Assembly: GCF_000597725.1 (NCBI RefSeq)
Contig: NZ_JFBL01000001.1
Span: 248,001 to 312,000 of the forward strand
DNA from: Sulfurospirillum arcachonense DSM 9755
GTDB lineage: Bacteria; Campylobacterota; Campylobacteria; Campylobacterales; Sulfurospirillaceae
Reading direction: 5' to 3'
Length of the DNA stretch: 64,000 nt
How positions within the stretch are numbered: position 1 is the stretch's first letter; the number at the start of each line of letters is the position of its first letter. Shown here piece after piece: positions 3,159-62,310 of the stretch. The notes beneath the pieces are model-generated. The model was not told where the DNA came from and did not search any database. It worked only from the letters and a program-made list of their open reading frames with translations. The translations under genes and the position numbers were made by a program.

Positions 3159-3736
3159 ATATCAATCCTCAAATTTTTTATTATTTTAAAACCTACTAAT
3201 GCATTCATTATAGCAAATTTTTCTGACTTTTCTAAATCTTTTATGCTTAAATTATCACACTTTAAAAAACCCTCTGCTAGTAGCCTTTCTCTTGTAGTGC
3301 CATGCAAAAGAGGAGTTTTAGGAGTAAGCCAAATTCCGTCTATTTTTAATGCAATATTTGCAATACTCGTATCGCTTAAAAATCCATTTTTTAGGATCAC
3401 TATATCGTCATAATTTTCATCTAAAAGCTTATTTAATTCTTCTCTATTTGAGTATTTGTACTCATAATCTATATTGGCCTCTACAACTTTAAAAGAGCAA
3501 AGACTCCTTGGTCTATACTCTTTACATGTAAGGCTTTTTATCTCTTTATCATAATCAACTCTTAAGCGATAAACTCCCTCTTTTGGGTACTTTTTTATCT
3601 CTTTTTTTAAATCAAGTATCTCTTTACATGTAAAGAGTTTTTCTCTAGTATAATCGACTCTTTTTTGATGGTATTCTAAGTTTAAAAGTTTTCCATTTTC
3701 TACTTTTATAGTTTCAAAACAGGTTTTAGTTTTCAT
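3155..3736 (-). CDS. Class IV aminotransferase, probable 4-amino-4-deoxychorismate lyase (PabC-like)
   Basis: This is a fold-type IV PLP enzyme of 193 aa, shorter than E. coli PabC (about 270 aa), as in other Campylobacterota. Lys94 in YKYSNREE aligns by pattern with the PLP lysine before the N-R-E motif of PabC. VILKNGFLSDTSIANI and TPKTPLLHGTTRERLL match the later PLP-phosphate and substrate blocks. A role in p-aminobenzoate/folate synthesis is inferred; a pabB lies 6 kb away at 9335-10276 on the same strand. A branched-chain or D-amino-acid aminotransferase is the alternative. The gene contains two TACATGTA palindromes, at 3523 and 3625, encoding LTCK and FTCK. Confidence 0.82.
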   Translation of the reverse strand: MKTKTCFETIKVENGKLLNLEYHQKRVDYTREKLFTCKEILDLKKEIKKYPKEGVYRLRVDYDKEIKSLTCKEYRPRSLCSFKVVEANIDYEYKYSNREELNKLLDENYDDIVILKNGFLSDTSIANIALKIDGIWLTPKTPLLHGTTRERLLAEGFLKCDNLSIKDLEKSEKFAIMNALVGFKIIKNLRIDI

Positions 3737-5677: not shown

Positions 5678-6271
5678 TTAAAAACTAACTTTTGGTGCTT
5701 GTTGTATCTCTTTTGTATCTTCAAACTCCAATAAAGTTGCATCATTTGGGTGTCCAAATGTAGTTGATAGAATATTTTGGGGAAAAGATTGTCTATAAGT
5801 GTTATATGTCATAACAGAATCATTGTATGCTTGTCTGGCAAAAGCAACCTTATTTTCTGTTGTAGTAATCTCTTCATGAAGTTGTTGCATAGTTTCATTT
5901 GCTTTTAAATCAGGATAATCTTCCATGACAAAATTTAACTTTGACATTGCAGAAGATAACTCTTGGTTTGCTTGAGACAAAGCTCCCATGAGAGTTGGGT
6001 CTGCTGGATTTTGTTGTGTATTTTTTAAACTTTTTGAAGCAGTATTACGTGCAGAAATAACTTTTTCTAAAGTTTCACTTTCATGTTTGAGGTAACCTTT
6101 AGCAGTCTCTACTAATGATGGGATAAGATCATAACGACGTTTTAGTTGTACTTCTATTTGTGAGAAAGCATTTAAGAAACGATTTTTAAGTAATACAAGA
6201 CGATTAAAAATCTGCATAAAAAATAAGCCTACAACACAAACAACAGCAAGAAAAACAAGTATACTAACCAT
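5678..6271 (-). CDS. lemA: LemA family protein
   Basis: This 197-aa protein has one N-terminal membrane helix (residues 3-22) followed by the long helical LemA domain. Recognisable blocks are NRLVLLKNRFLNAFSQIEVQLKRR, read as two adjacent pieces, then DLIPSLVETAKGYLKHE and the FARQAYNDSVMTYNTYRQSFP signature. It precedes the M48 peptidase by 9 bases and is surely co-transcribed with it. LemA proteins often sit beside M48 peptidases, and a partner or scaffold role is inferred. The ATG at 6271 is followed directly by the membrane helix, which supports the start. Confidence 0.93.
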   Translation of the reverse strand: MVSILVFLAVVCVVGLFFMQIFNRLVLLKNRFLNAFSQIEVQLKRRYDLIPSLVETAKGYLKHESETLEKVISARNTASKSLKNTQQNPADPTLMGALSQANQELSSAMSKLNFVMEDYPDLKANETMQQLHEEITTTENKVAFARQAYNDSVMTYNTYRQSFPQNILSTTFGHPNDATLLEFEDTKEIQQAPKVSF

Positions 6272-6360: not shown

Positions 6361-6400
6361 CTTTCTACATGTAAAGAACGCAAGCTTTACATGTAGAAAG
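6361..6400 (-). terminator. Perfect 16-bp hairpin built from two TACATGTA motifs
   Basis: The arms CTTTCTACATGTAAAG (6361-6376) and CTTTACATGTAGAAAG (6385-6400) are perfect reverse complements with an 8-base loop. The hairpin lies 16 bases past the stop of the DsbA-like gene, where a Rho-independent terminator is expected, though no strong T-run follows on that strand. Each arm holds one copy of the window-wide TACATGTA palindrome. Confidence 0.72.
6388..6395. repeat. Example of the dispersed TACATGTA palindrome (32 copies in the window)
   Basis: Copies by my reading start at 3523, 3625, 6366, 6388, 9932, 10091, 11972, 12153, 13748, 15006, 20206, 20633, 22498, 23248, 23713, 24135, 32442, 32700, 33276, 36116, 37951, 42074, 43644, 44457, 45877, 50548, 56999, 57487, 58824, 58917, 60586 and 62299. 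About eighteen extend to TTACATGTAA. Base composition predicts roughly two to three 8-mers and fewer than one 10-mer in 64 kb. Five copies are non-coding or span a start; the rest are inside genes. Confidence 0.85.
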
Positions 6401-6416
6401 AATTTTTATATCTCTA

Positions 6417-7028
6417 TTAACTTAGTTTATTTACTATATCTTGATATTCAAAATATCCTCTACTTAAAACTTTTGTATTGGAATCATCTTTTATAAGTAA
6501 AGTAGGATAACTATTTGCTAAACTTTTTGCTTGATTAAATTCTGCTTGTAGCTCTTGTGTGTTTACCTCACTCAACCAAAGCTTTTTAAACTCTTCCACA
6601 TTTATAGATAAGTCTTTTAGTATATCTTCATATGCTTCTATGGCATCTAGTTTAACACCATCTATAAAGAGTCTTTTTTGTACCATTTGCATAAACTTTA
6701 TATACTTTGTTTTATCTAGTTTCTTTACTGCAATAATCGCAGATGCAGGGAAAAAAGAGTCAAATCTATACGAAGAATCCCCAGCTAAGTTAAAAAACTC
6801 TTGACTTGGAGATTGTTTTGTTATCTCTTTTAGTCTCACAGCATCATTGACAACAAAATCTTTTAAGCCTTGACTTCCAGATGGGGCATCATCATTGAGC
6901 CACATCGCACCTATATAAACTTCTATTTCAAATTTGTTTTTATAGTTTTCATATAACTCTTCAAAACTTTTACTATTTCCAAAACACCAACCGCACATAG
7001 GATTCATAATGTATATTAATTTTTTCAT
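6417..7028 (-). CDS. DsbA-family thioredoxin-fold protein, cytoplasmic (FrnE-like)
   Basis: This 203-aa DsbA/FrnE-like protein has a CGWC redox motif at residues 12-15 directly after the first beta strand (KKLIYIMNP). There is no signal peptide, so it should act in the cytoplasm as a disulfide or thiol oxidoreductase. The C-terminal PTLLI segment supplies the cis-proline loop expected of the fold. It is transcribed alone or as the last gene before the 6361-6400 hairpin. The substrate is unknown; a 2-hydroxychromene-2-carboxylate isomerase-like role is less likely because both cysteines are kept. Confidence 0.85.
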   Translation of the reverse strand: MKKLIYIMNPMCGWCFGNSKSFEELYENYKNKFEIEVYIGAMWLNDDAPSGSQGLKDFVVNDAVRLKEITKQSPSQEFFNLAGDSSYRFDSFFPASAIIAVKKLDKTKYIKFMQMVQKRLFIDGVKLDAIEAYEDILKDLSINVEEFKKLWLSEVNTQELQAEFNQAKSLANSYPTLLIKDDSNTKVLSRGYFEYQDIVNKLS

Positions 7029-7161: not shown

Positions 7162-8280
7162 TTATTTAAAACTACTAATAAATTCATCATAACTACCCAA
7201 AGAAGAAAAATTTATTTCAAAATTTTCATCATCAATTTTATCAATTCTAACAGAATCTATATCTATGACTTGAAGTTTGTCATATGTTAAAAGTTCACCC
7301 TCTTTTAATTTTAAAACATCTCTTAATATCCACTTACCAAGTTCTTTATTGGAATATGACATTAAAGCTTTCCCACCATCTTGACAAATTTTTGATTTCA
7401 TAATTTTACTATTTGGTAATTTTAAATTAAAAGATGTATTTCTATCTGGAAAAAAATTTGAATTTATTGTATAGATTATTGAGGGTACAGGAATATAGAC
7501 TTCATTATAATCTCTTTTTCTACCTTTTGCATTCCATTGATTTAAACCACTTCTTTCAAAAACAGTTTTATCTTTTCCATGTAAGGGTAAATAAATAGTC
7601 TCTTTTACTCTTGTTTCTGATGAAAATAGTAATTGCTTACTTTCAAAACATTGCTTTAAATTTTCAAGTGGATTTTCTAAAATTTTAATAGGAAACTCAA
7701 ATAAAAAATCACTAGTACAAAATCTTTTTGTAAGTGTACTTTTAGATAAGAGAAAAGAATAATCATATTTCCCATCATTAAAAGTTATTGAGCTTTTATT
7801 TTGTTTGATATTCTTAATATTTTCAATATCAACTAGTGACATATTCTCTTCATAAACTTTAAATAATCCATTATCTCTAACAATACAGTGATAAATTGAA
7901 TTATCTAAAGAAAATAAATTTTGAGAAAATTCAATTCTTGCATTTCTTAGTTCAGCTATTTTATAAATTAATTTTTTATATTCTAAATTTTCGTAGATAT
8001 TTTTGTCACTATTAAACTCTGCAACTTTTTGAAATGACTTTTTATTTCCTATCAAAAAAGTTTTTAGACCAATTCCTAATTTTTTCTTTTTTGCATCGAT
8101 AGCAACATCACTTCTTGATAAGTCATCAGCATTGAATGATTTACAAAAGATTTTTTCAGCAATCCTATAATATAAATATGGTGTTAATGAATCTGAAAAA
8201 AGATTTGATAAACTTCCAATCAATTGTAAATTATTTTTATACTCTTCTTGATCTTTTAACAACTGTGACTTAAAAAACAT
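7162..8280 (-). CDS. Probable type II restriction endonuclease (NgoFVII-like C-terminus)
   Basis: This 372-aa protein is encoded one base after the stop of the cytosine methyltransferase, the usual place for its endonuclease partner. Residues 57-75 (SDVAIDAKKKKLGIGLKTF) look like the core of a nuclease, with acidic residues followed by a G-L-K strand, in PD-(D/E)XK style. The C-terminal third (FFPDRNTSFNLKLPNSKI to DSVRIDKI, with KELGKWILRDVLKLKEGE between) recalls the B3-like DNA-binding domain of NgoFVII-type enzymes; this is from memory and not a search. The gene lacks TACATGTA palindromes. Catalytic activity and specificity are unproven. Confidence 0.72.
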   Translation of the reverse strand: MFFKSQLLKDQEEYKNNLQLIGSLSNLFSDSLTPYLYYRIAEKIFCKSFNADDLSRSDVAIDAKKKKLGIGLKTFLIGNKKSFQKVAEFNSDKNIYENLEYKKLIYKIAELRNARIEFSQNLFSLDNSIYHCIVRDNGLFKVYEENMSLVDIENIKNIKQNKSSITFNDGKYDYSFLLSKSTLTKRFCTSDFLFEFPIKILENPLENLKQCFESKQLLFSSETRVKETIYLPLHGKDKTVFERSGLNQWNAKGRKRDYNEVYIPVPSIIYTINSNFFPDRNTSFNLKLPNSKIMKSKICQDGGKALMSYSNKELGKWILRDVLKLKEGELLTYDKLQVIDIDSVRIDKIDDENFEINFSSLGSYDEFISSFK

Positions 8281-8281
8281 A

Positions 8282-9253
8282 TCAATATCCTAATGATTTT
8301 TTTATTTCTACAGCAAGTGATTTTATAACATTTATAGAAACAGAATTTCCAAATTGTTTATATAAATGTGAGTCAGCCAAAGAAGTAGGAATTTTATAAG
8401 AAGCAGGAAATCCTTGAAAATTACCACACTCTCTTGGAGTTAATTTTCGTATTCCTACTTTATCTTTAATTATAGGAACATTATGTCCTCCTGTTCCCAT
8501 ATTTGCTGTTAATGTAGGACAGACTAAACTTTTATTTTCTCTAATATATCGTCTTCTCCATTGATATACGCTATCCTCACTAACGACATCATCTTTGATT
8601 TTTTCAAATAAAGGTTTTCCATTATAATAATATTTCTTTTCCACGTTAGTCTCTAAACAATTTTTAATACTTTTTTCTAATTTGGTTTCTAGAGGAAATT
8701 TAAAATCAAGTGAATTATCTAAAAAAGCAATTATATAAATACGTTCTCTATTTTGTGGTATACCAAAATCTTTTGAATTTAATACTTTTGAAAAAACTTT
8801 ATATCCAATATCTTTTAGAGTTTGTTTTACAACCTTGAAAGTATTTCCATTGTCATGTCCTACAAAACCTTTTACATTTTCTAAAAAAATCACCTTTGGC
8901 TTATGATGTTTTGCTATTCTTGCAACATCAAAAAACAATGTTCCTCTAGTATCATCAAAACCTTTTCTATGTCCAGCAACACTAAATGCTTGACAAGGAA
9001 AACCTGCTAAAATAATATCATGCTCAGGTATTTCTTTTTCATCTATTTTAGTAATATCACCAAATGGCTTCTCGTAAAAATTTATATTATAAGTTTTTTG
9101 AGCATTGCTATCAATTTCTGAAGAAAAAACAAATTTTAATTTATTTTTAAATACTTCTTCAAAACCTAATCTTATTCCACCAATACCTGCGAATAAATCT
9201 ATAACTTTTAATTCATTATGTTCAATCACATTATTAGCAATTCTTTTAGTCAT
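8282..9253 (-). CDS. DNA (cytosine-5) methyltransferase, type II
   Basis: This C5-cytosine methyltransferase of about 323 aa has HhaI-like length and all core motifs in order: DLFAGIGG (SAM binding), GFPCQAFS with the catalytic Cys (residue 87 from this start), FLENVKGF, QNRERIYIIAF and the C-terminal FGNSVS. The target-recognition region contains LTANMGTGGHNVP. A longer frame would begin at GTG 9259, but AAGGG lies five bases before the ATG at 9253, which I prefer. With the following endonuclease gene it forms a compact restriction-modification unit inserted between pabB and the DsbA-like gene. Methylation specificity cannot be read from the sequence. Confidence 0.93.
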   Translation of the reverse strand: MTKRIANNVIEHNELKVIDLFAGIGGIRLGFEEVFKNKLKFVFSSEIDSNAQKTYNINFYEKPFGDITKIDEKEIPEHDIILAGFPCQAFSVAGHRKGFDDTRGTLFFDVARIAKHHKPKVIFLENVKGFVGHDNGNTFKVVKQTLKDIGYKVFSKVLNSKDFGIPQNRERIYIIAFLDNSLDFKFPLETKLEKSIKNCLETNVEKKYYYNGKPLFEKIKDDVVSEDSVYQWRRRYIRENKSLVCPTLTANMGTGGHNVPIIKDKVGIRKLTPRECGNFQGFPASYKIPTSLADSHLYKQFGNSVSINVIKSLAVEIKKSLGY

Positions 9254-9334
9254 TCTCACCCTTATAATATTTATGTGTTATTTTATCTAAAAAAATAGAT
9301 TTTAAATAAAATATTTCATTTTGTAATATTTTAT

Positions 9335-23198: not shown

Positions 23199-23293
23199 TA
23201 GCACATTTCGACAAACAAAAAGCTATTTTTTATGTAGTTAATTTCTTTACATGTAGCTAATATTCTATTATCAAAAAATAGATAGGATACATA

Positions 23294-35885: not shown

Positions 35886-36181
35886 GATAGTTCCTCCCAT
35901 ACAGGTTCATTTGATTCACATGCTCTTAGAATTGCTGCTTGTAATCTTGCTTTTATAACAAAATCCAGAGCGCCTTTATCTTGTACTTTTACTAAAATAT
36001 TATTTATTTTCATCTCTTTTAAAGTTTGTACAACTAACTCTTCTATAGCTTCGCCATAGATTTCTTCAACACTACTTTCAAGAATTAACTTGATTTCATT
36101 TTCTTGTATTGGACTTACATGTATATAAGCATCACTAGATTCTAGAGTACCTGCATAAGCACTTTTTTTCAATATATTCAT
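35882..36181 (-). CDS. citD: Citrate lyase acyl carrier protein (gamma subunit)
   Basis: This 99-aa carrier holds the phosphoribosyl-dephospho-CoA group. The attachment serine is Ser15 in AGTLESSDAYI, matching the AGTLESSD motif of Klebsiella CitD. It starts 8 bases after citC and overlaps citE by four bases. A TACATGTA copy at 36116 lies just after the attachment motif (YIHVSP). Confidence 0.95.
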   Translation of the reverse strand: MNILKKSAYAGTLESSDAYIHVSPIQENEIKLILESSVEEIYGEAIEELVVQTLKEMKINNILVKVQDKGALDFVIKARLQAAILRACESNEPVWEELS

Positions 36182-62175: not shown

Positions 62176-62310
62176 CGATTTAATCCTATTTATATTTAAA
62201 AATTCTTTTATTTTATCTAAAATAGACGAAAAAATAGCTTATAGGTCTTCTCGTATGAATTTACAATACAATGATAAAGAAAATAATTTAAATAGGATTA
62301 CATGTAAAGT

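What the first reader, a model, noticed from the sequence alone, without database searches (positions are those of the whole stretch)
6361..6400. Two TACATGTA copies form a perfect 16-bp hairpin after the dsbA-like gene
The two arms are exact reverse complements and each carries one copy. Inverted pairs acting as terminators are a known habit of uptake sequences in Haemophilus and Neisseria, so this pair supports thinking of the motif as a functional genomic word.
Basis: partly seen in the sequence, partly recalled or inferred. Interest (0 to 1): 0.5.

Follow-up and report, generated by a model that had tools for sequence, protein, structure and literature searches.

The report
Hairpin built from a genome-wide word
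A Sulfurospirillum-like bacterium repeats the palindrome TACATGTA about a thousand times, and many close pairs of copies can form RNA hairpins just after genes, as the DNA-uptake words of Neisseria and Haemophilus do; what the word itself is for has not been tested.

Summary
The hairpin is real: 6361-6376 and 6385-6400 are perfect 16-bp inverted arms around an 8-nt loop (z = -6.9). TACATGTA occurs 1124 times in the 2.66-Mb genome against 54 for the reversed control. It exceeds five times that control in 40 of 44 genomes of the family; of 375 phylum genomes sampled outside it, 9 have at least 100 copies and five times the control. The word is its own reverse complement, so any two copies are 'inverted' and the core pairing is trivial. 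What is not trivial: close pairs are in excess (52 against about 9 expected here; 1142 against 315 over 44 genomes), they pair further inward than chance, and intergenic ones start a median 6-7 nt after stop codons, none between divergent genes in those examined. A few recur after the same gene in another genus. So gene-end hairpins are recruited from the word. This hairpin lacks a U-tract on the gene's strand; the T-run is on the other strand. An uptake role is plausible but untested; the word is palindromic, unlike known uptake words, and the two methyltransferase families searched are absent here.

The parts
6361..6376 (-). 3' arm (minus-strand reading) of the 16-bp hairpin
6385..6400 (-). 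5' arm (minus-strand reading) of the 16-bp hairpin
6377..6384 (-). 8-nt loop
6366..6373 (.). TACATGTA copy in the left arm
6388..6395 (.). TACATGTA copy in the right arm
6401..6410 (+). T-rich tail AATTTTTATA on the plus strand, the only side scored as terminator-like
6417..7028 (-). dsbA-like (Thioredoxin_5) gene whose 3' end carries the hairpin; matched at E <= 0.001 in 1 of 44 family genomes (this one)
5678..6271 (-). lemA gene, next gene downstream in the same direction
3523..3530. single TACATGTA inside a gene (one example of 30 other copies in the window; the full list is)
23248..23255 (.). single TACATGTA outside the called genes
36116..36123 (.). single TACATGTA outside the called genes
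62299..62306 (.). single TACATGTA outside the called genes

Best explanation
The element is an RNA hairpin at the 3' end of the dsbA-like transcript, made from two copies of a short palindromic word (core TACATGTA, consensus CTTTACATGTAAAG) that some genome-wide process keeps at about one copy per 2.4 kb. Because copies are abundant and self-complementary, two that fall close together after a stop codon make a ready-made stem. Selection then lengthens the stem inward and keeps it as a transcript-end structure: a terminator, or a barrier that protects the 3' end, used weakly in one or both directions. Shown by computation: the hairpin, the word's excess, the excess of close pairs, their position after stop codons, extra inward pairing, and recurrence at a few orthologous genes in another genus. 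Inferred: that they stop or protect transcripts. Inferred with less confidence (about 0.4): that the genome-wide word is a self-DNA recognition (uptake) sequence for natural transformation.
For: Pairs with a gap of 0-30 nt: 63 against 0 in the reversed control. Gap 3-20 nt: 52 against 8.6 expected here, and 1142 against 315.5 over 44 genomes, above expectation in 41 of 44 (rounded genome sizes and even placement assumed). Allowing for the higher intergenic density raises the expectation here to about 12 (my arithmetic). Of 50 of the 63 own pairs (those listed), 24 lie inside genes, 14 codirectional, 11 convergent, 1 unresolved at a contig end, 0 divergent. Of 39 of 41 pairs in G017 (another genus), 18 convergent, 13 codirectional, 8 inside, 0 divergent. 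Distance from stop codon to hairpin edge, gap 3-20: median 6 nt (27 of 35 gene ends within 0-30) in G000, 7 nt (42 of 49) in G017. Inward pairing of 4 or more in 15 of 35 pairs with gap 11-20 (43%), against 4.1% of random pairs of isolated copies. Three orthologous gene pairs (75-82% identical proteins) end in a TACATGTA hairpin in both G000 and G017; in one the fourth inner pair is G-C in G000 and C-G in G017; in another it is A-U in G000, G-U in G017 and G-C in CTSoil_042. Intergenic copies: 2.5 per kb between convergent and 0.54 per kb between divergent genes. Window hairpin z = -6.91.
Against: No U-tract follows this hairpin on the dsbA strand (TAAATAACCCAT), and only the plus strand is scored as terminator-like. 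In G000, runs of four T follow 9 of 35 hairpin ends, no more than 23 of 105 control 3' windows, and codirectional hairpins (13) are as T-rich on the wrong side. In the sample, two-word hairpins have less T in the tail (0.25, 6 gene ends) than other gene-end hairpins (0.39, 42 ends). Only G017 shows T-rich tails (43-59% T at positions 3-9, background 30%; TTTT in 21 of 49; no control windows of its own). The stem is AT-rich (5 GC pairs of 16). Outward pairing is hardly above chance (3 or more in 17% against 13%). 24 of 50 own pairs lie inside genes, where they are unlikely to be terminators. The dsbA-like protein has no match in the other 43 family genomes, so this site cannot be tested for conservation.
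Confidence: 0.68

Rival explanations
1. The word is a DNA uptake sequence: a competence pilin or other receptor binds TACATGTA on incoming DNA, so transformation by kin enriches the genome in it, and the hairpins are a by-product recruited as 3' ends, as in Neisseriaceae and Pasteurellaceae. (Compatible with the best explanation; it concerns why the word is there.)
For: Density (1124 in 2.66 Mb) is of the order of DUS/USS; flanks vary between genomes (+1 is A in 94% of copies in G018 and 82% in G168, but G in 46% in G354 of the same genus as G168; AG follows the core in most G156 copies); a ComEC domain is found in 41 of 44 family genomes, with two pseudopilin-like genes about 4 kb from it in G000; inverted pairs at gene ends as Kingsford 2007 and Frye 2013 describe for known uptake words; decayed copies with consensus flanks exist (15 of 287 one-mismatch words with 5-6 flank matches, 5.2%, against 0-1.8% for 11 control words).
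Against: The word is a symmetric palindrome (left and right flanks independent, r = -0.04), unlike the known words. ComEC is also present in G015, which lacks the excess. One-mismatch words are not in overall excess (287 against 305). No transformation data. The 10 library searches showed no report of an uptake word here in the rows listed, and a C. jejuni paper says none had been identified in that species (passage).
Confidence: 0.4
2. The word is a highly iterated palindrome of the HIP1 kind, kept because a DNA methyltransferase marks it (CATG core), for replication, repair or recombination.
For: Palindromic, very frequent, patchy outside the family (7 genomes of family f8 and 2 of f3 among 375), and G015 has another CATG palindrome instead (TATCATGATA, 166 against 2 reversed).
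Against: The genome is 99.99% complete and has no match to MethyltransfD12 or N6_N4_Mtase; G168 (611 copies) has neither. Other methyltransferase classes were not searched genome-wide; the window carries a C5 methyltransferase beside an NgoFVII-like endonuclease.
Confidence: 0.2
3. The word is the site of a dimeric chromosomal protein (nucleoid, segregation or recombination factor), which would explain its symmetry.
For: Two-fold symmetry with independent half-sites and weak T tracts at +6 to +9 on both sides; low density between divergent genes.
Against: No candidate protein identified; hairpins at gene ends are not predicted by it; three word-free stretches over 15 kb in the sample.
Confidence: 0.2
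4. The hairpin is a chance meeting of two copies of a common palindrome, with no function of its own.
For: Half of the stem is given by the palindrome; 24 of 50 own pairs lie inside genes; no U-tract on the gene strand here.
Against: Pair excess, stop-codon placement, inward pairing and recurrence at orthologous genes; 5 extra outward pairs here (1.7% by chance).
Confidence: 0.1

Closest known systems
Inverted DUS/USS pairs used as terminators (Neisseriaceae, Pasteurellaceae; Kingsford 2007 PMC1852404, Frye 2013 PMC3630211)
   Same: Very many copies of one short word; close inverted pairs in excess just after genes and enriched between convergent genes; sequence variants between lineages
   Different: The word is palindromic so it has no orientation; tails are weak in the window's genome; uptake not shown; different phylum; a smaller share of gene-end hairpins carries it (6 of 48 gene-end hairpins of 8 bp or more in the sample, against about 55% of high-confidence Neisseria terminators and 17-29% in Pasteurellaceae; the methods differ)
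HIP1 and related highly iterated palindromes of cyanobacteria (PMC4390886, abstract and passages)
   Same: Short palindrome, high copy number, lineage-specific
   Different: The two methyltransferase families searched are absent from this genome; strong gene-end hairpin use, which I do not recall for HIP1 (recalled, not searched)
Ordinary intrinsic (Rho-independent) terminators
   Same: Stem-loop shortly after a stop codon
   Different: AT-rich stem, no U-tract on the gene strand at this site, stem sequence fixed by a genomic word

Membership tests
DNA uptake sequence (DUS/USS) | Hundreds to thousands of copies, far above expectation | tested here: met
   1124 against 54 reversed; at least 5-fold in 40 of 44 family genomes
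DNA uptake sequence (DUS/USS) | Promotes uptake or transformation of DNA that carries it | not testable with these tools
   needs a transformation assay
DNA uptake sequence (DUS/USS) | Host has a competence machinery | tested here: inconclusive
   ComEC domain in 41 of 44 genomes, two pseudopilin-like genes nearby in G000; other parts not searched, competence not known
DNA uptake sequence (DUS/USS) | Specific receptor (such as ComP) | not tested
   no candidate singled out
DNA uptake sequence (DUS/USS) | Asymmetric, oriented word, as in the known words quoted | tested here: not met
   symmetric palindrome, flanks independent
DNA uptake sequence (DUS/USS) | Inverted pairs in excess at gene 3' ends | tested here: met
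HIP1-type iterated palindrome | Palindromic, highly iterated | tested here: met
HIP1-type iterated palindrome | Cognate methyltransferase, here tested only for the D12 and N6_N4 families | tested here: not met
   no match in G000 or G168; other classes not tested
Intrinsic terminator | Stable stem-loop just after the stop codon | tested here: met
   16 nt after the dsbA-like stop, z = -6.91
Intrinsic terminator | U-tract directly after the stem on the gene's strand | tested here: not met
   minus-strand tail TAAATAACCCAT; only the plus strand is called

The most novel reading that the evidence does not exclude
TACATGTA is a third, independently evolved self-DNA word for natural transformation, in Campylobacterota, and the first palindromic one. 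It is read by a symmetric receptor, varies in its flanks between lineages, has been replaced by another CATG palindrome (TATCATGATA) in at least one relative, and its hairpins at gene ends evolved convergently with those of Neisseria and Haemophilus.
Probability: 0.35. Interest if true: 0.8.

Novelty: new variant of a known kind. Interest (0 to 1): 0.57.

Why it matters
Uptake words with terminator hairpins are described for Neisseriaceae and Pasteurellaceae. The same architecture in a Campylobacterota family, with a palindromic word and relatives that lack it, would show that abundant genomic words are repeatedly recruited as transcript ends. It also gives a tractable system, with patchy distribution among near relatives, for finding what keeps such words in genomes.

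Tried and rejected
Conservation of this exact hairpin: the dsbA-like protein matches in 1 of 44 family genomes (own only, plus a second own match at 20% identity), so the site cannot be compared; the genome-contig scan with it confirmed nothing.

CATG methyltransferase idea: D12 matched in 31 of 39 genomes and N6_N4 in 9 of 17, with no visible agreement with word content; I did not sort the matches into orthologous groups.

Replacement word in G015: TATCATGATA is enriched (166 against 2 reversed) but its 8-bp core shows no excess of close pairs (6 found; about 5 expected, my estimate), so the gene-end habit is not shown there.

Conservation of single intragenic copies at orthologous positions: only 15 aligned positions, 0 conserved, 5 of them with 6-7 mismatches that look like alignment offsets; inconclusive.

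Persistence of pairs in word-poor genomes: the ratio of pairs to expectation is higher there (G026 4 against 0.08, G034 12 against 0.75, G039 12 against 0.47; but G006 and G011 have 0 pairs, and the reversed control is not zero in G003 and G038). This fits decay of single copies with retained hairpins, but I have no tree to show direction, so I do not lean on it.

Viruses: the hairpin pattern has 0 matches in viral contigs. Rfam: one match far below its gathering score, a miRNA family, discarded. Literature: one search lists 20 of 290 papers that hold the letters, none on bacterial genome words by title. All 10 paper searches were seen as listings; papers were opened as passages, or as an outline and two sections.

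Full report
What is there. The window belongs to a 2.66-Mb genome in 42 contigs. A hairpin pattern in named genomes gave 5 stretches: 3 from Sulfurospirillum MAGs and 2 from a MAG labelled only 'Proteobacteria' (CTSoil_042). Seven CTSoil_042 proteins are 92-97% identical to G017 of the window's family, and proteins of the three Sulfurospirillum stretches match the window's genome at up to 67-86%. I therefore call the organism Sulfurospirillum-like, which is inference. At 6361-6400 two perfect 16-bp arms enclose an 8-nt loop. The minus-strand RNA folds at -22.6 kcal/mol, z = -6.91. It lies 16 nt after the stop of a minus-strand Thioredoxin_5/DsbA-like gene and about 90 nt before a minus-strand lemA gene.

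The word. TACATGTA occurs 32 times in the window (1.36 expected) and 1124 times in the genome, against 54 for the same letters read backwards. In a 464-kb sample it is found 158 times in genes, 45 times between genes and once at an edge: 0.36 per kb in coding and 1.48 per kb in non-coding DNA, with a home-made gene caller. The consensus is CTTTACATGTAAAG with weak T enrichment at +6 to +9; the two sides are independent (r = -0.04), so it is a palindrome without orientation. One-mismatch words are not in excess overall (287 against 305), but those with consensus flanks are (15 of 287, 5.2%, against 0-1.8% for 11 control words), so some decayed copies exist.

Who has it. In the family, all 44 held genomes were counted: 40 exceed five times the reversed control; G015 (28 against 25), G026 (109 against 50), G006 (104 against 25) and G011 (92 against 22) do not. 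In a sample of 397 genomes of the phylum, 22 are of this family; of the other 375, 9 have at least 100 copies and five times the control: 7 in family f8 and 2 in f3. G015 instead has an excess of TATCATGATA (166 against 2 reversed), which the other 43 do not reach (next highest 39). Flanks differ between genomes: +1 is A in 94% of copies in G018, A 84% followed by G 63% in G156, and G 46% in G354.

Pairs. Because the word is self-complementary, any two copies can pair over 8 bp, so 'inverted' alone means little. The tests that matter are number, place and extra pairing. Number: 63 pairs with a gap up to 30 nt, 0 in the control; with gap 3-20, 52 against 8.6 expected here and 1142 against 315.5 in 44 genomes, above expectation in 41 (expectation is copies squared over genome length times 18; allowing for uneven density raises 8.6 to about 12). 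Extra pairing: among 35 own pairs with gap 11-20, inward pairing averages 2.6 (random 1.1) and reaches 4 or more in 15 (43%; random 4.1%); outward pairing is barely raised. Place: of 50 of 63 own pairs, 24 inside genes, 14 codirectional, 11 convergent, 0 divergent, 1 unresolved; of 39 of 41 pairs in G017, 8, 13, 18 and 0. For gap 3-20, intergenic hairpins start a median of 6 nt (35 gene ends, G000) and 7 nt (49, G017) from the stop codon. Three genes carry such a hairpin in both G000 and G017; one has a two-sided inner change between them, and in another the two-sided change is seen between G000 and CTSoil_042, with G-U in G017 between; a fourth G000 gene shares it with Sulfurospirillum sp. 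UBA12182. In the sample, 48 of 180 gene ends have a perfect stem of 8 bp or more (8 after shuffling); 6 of the 48 ends (5 distinct hairpins) contain two words, as do 5 of the 10 ends with stems of 14 bp or more (4 distinct hairpins).

Is it a terminator? Placement says 3'-end element. The tails say 'not a strong classical terminator' in this genome: T-runs of four follow 9 of 35 hairpin ends against 23 of 105 control windows, codirectional hairpins are equally T-rich on the wrong side, and two-word hairpins have less T in the tail than other gene-end hairpins (0.25 against 0.39). In G017 tails are T-rich (21 of 49 with TTTT). At the window hairpin the tail on the gene strand is TAAATAACCCAT, and only the plus strand is scored as terminator-like. 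A weak, two-way or RNA-protecting 3' end is therefore the better description.

What keeps the word? Uptake word: the copy number, flank variation, gene-end hairpins and ComEC in 41 of 44 genomes fit; the symmetry does not match known words, and ComEC does not distinguish G015. Methylated palindrome: D12 and N6_N4 methyltransferases are not found in G000 or G168, while other classes were not searched. Dimeric chromosomal protein: fits the symmetry, nothing else tested. I put uptake at about 0.4.

Comparison. Kingsford 2007 (two sections read) and Frye 2013 (passages) describe the same habit for known uptake words. I do not file TACATGTA as a DUS: the uptake test was not possible and its symmetry differs from known members. 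Searches of the held library showed no earlier report in the rows listed; several listings were capped (one search shows 20 of 290), so absence from print is not established.

Noticed in passing
G015 (locus ids L045-L054): A relative without TACATGTA excess has a different enriched palindrome, TATCATGATA (166 genome-wide against 2 reversed), without an excess of close pairs.
   Followed up: partly
L147-L156 (G345, G358): Two family f8 genomes without TACATGTA excess show frequent words with the core GCATCT/AGATGC, such as TAGCATCT 61 against 17 in G345; possibly another genomic word or a Chi-like site.
   Followed up: no
L157-L161 (G226): Excess of the palindrome TCGATATCGA (6 sites against 0.5 expected in 100 kb).
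   Followed up: no
window 7162-9259: NgoFVII-like restriction endonuclease and C5 methyltransferase genes directly beside the dsbA-like gene, which had no match in the other 43 family genomes: possibly an acquired block.
   Followed up: partly
L035:2919-3963: Two tandem pseudopilin-like genes about 4 kb from the ComEC gene, with priA- and dnaB-like genes (named by eye) between.
   Followed up: partly
L040-L041 (G000 C2:65885-81522): A 15.6-kb stretch without the word that covers parA/parB-, ATP synthase- and tol-like genes (named by eye); core genes, not an island.
   Followed up: no
464-kb sample of G000: 85 of 158 coding copies of the word read as Leu-His-Val, so the word may shape local protein sequence.
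   Followed up: no
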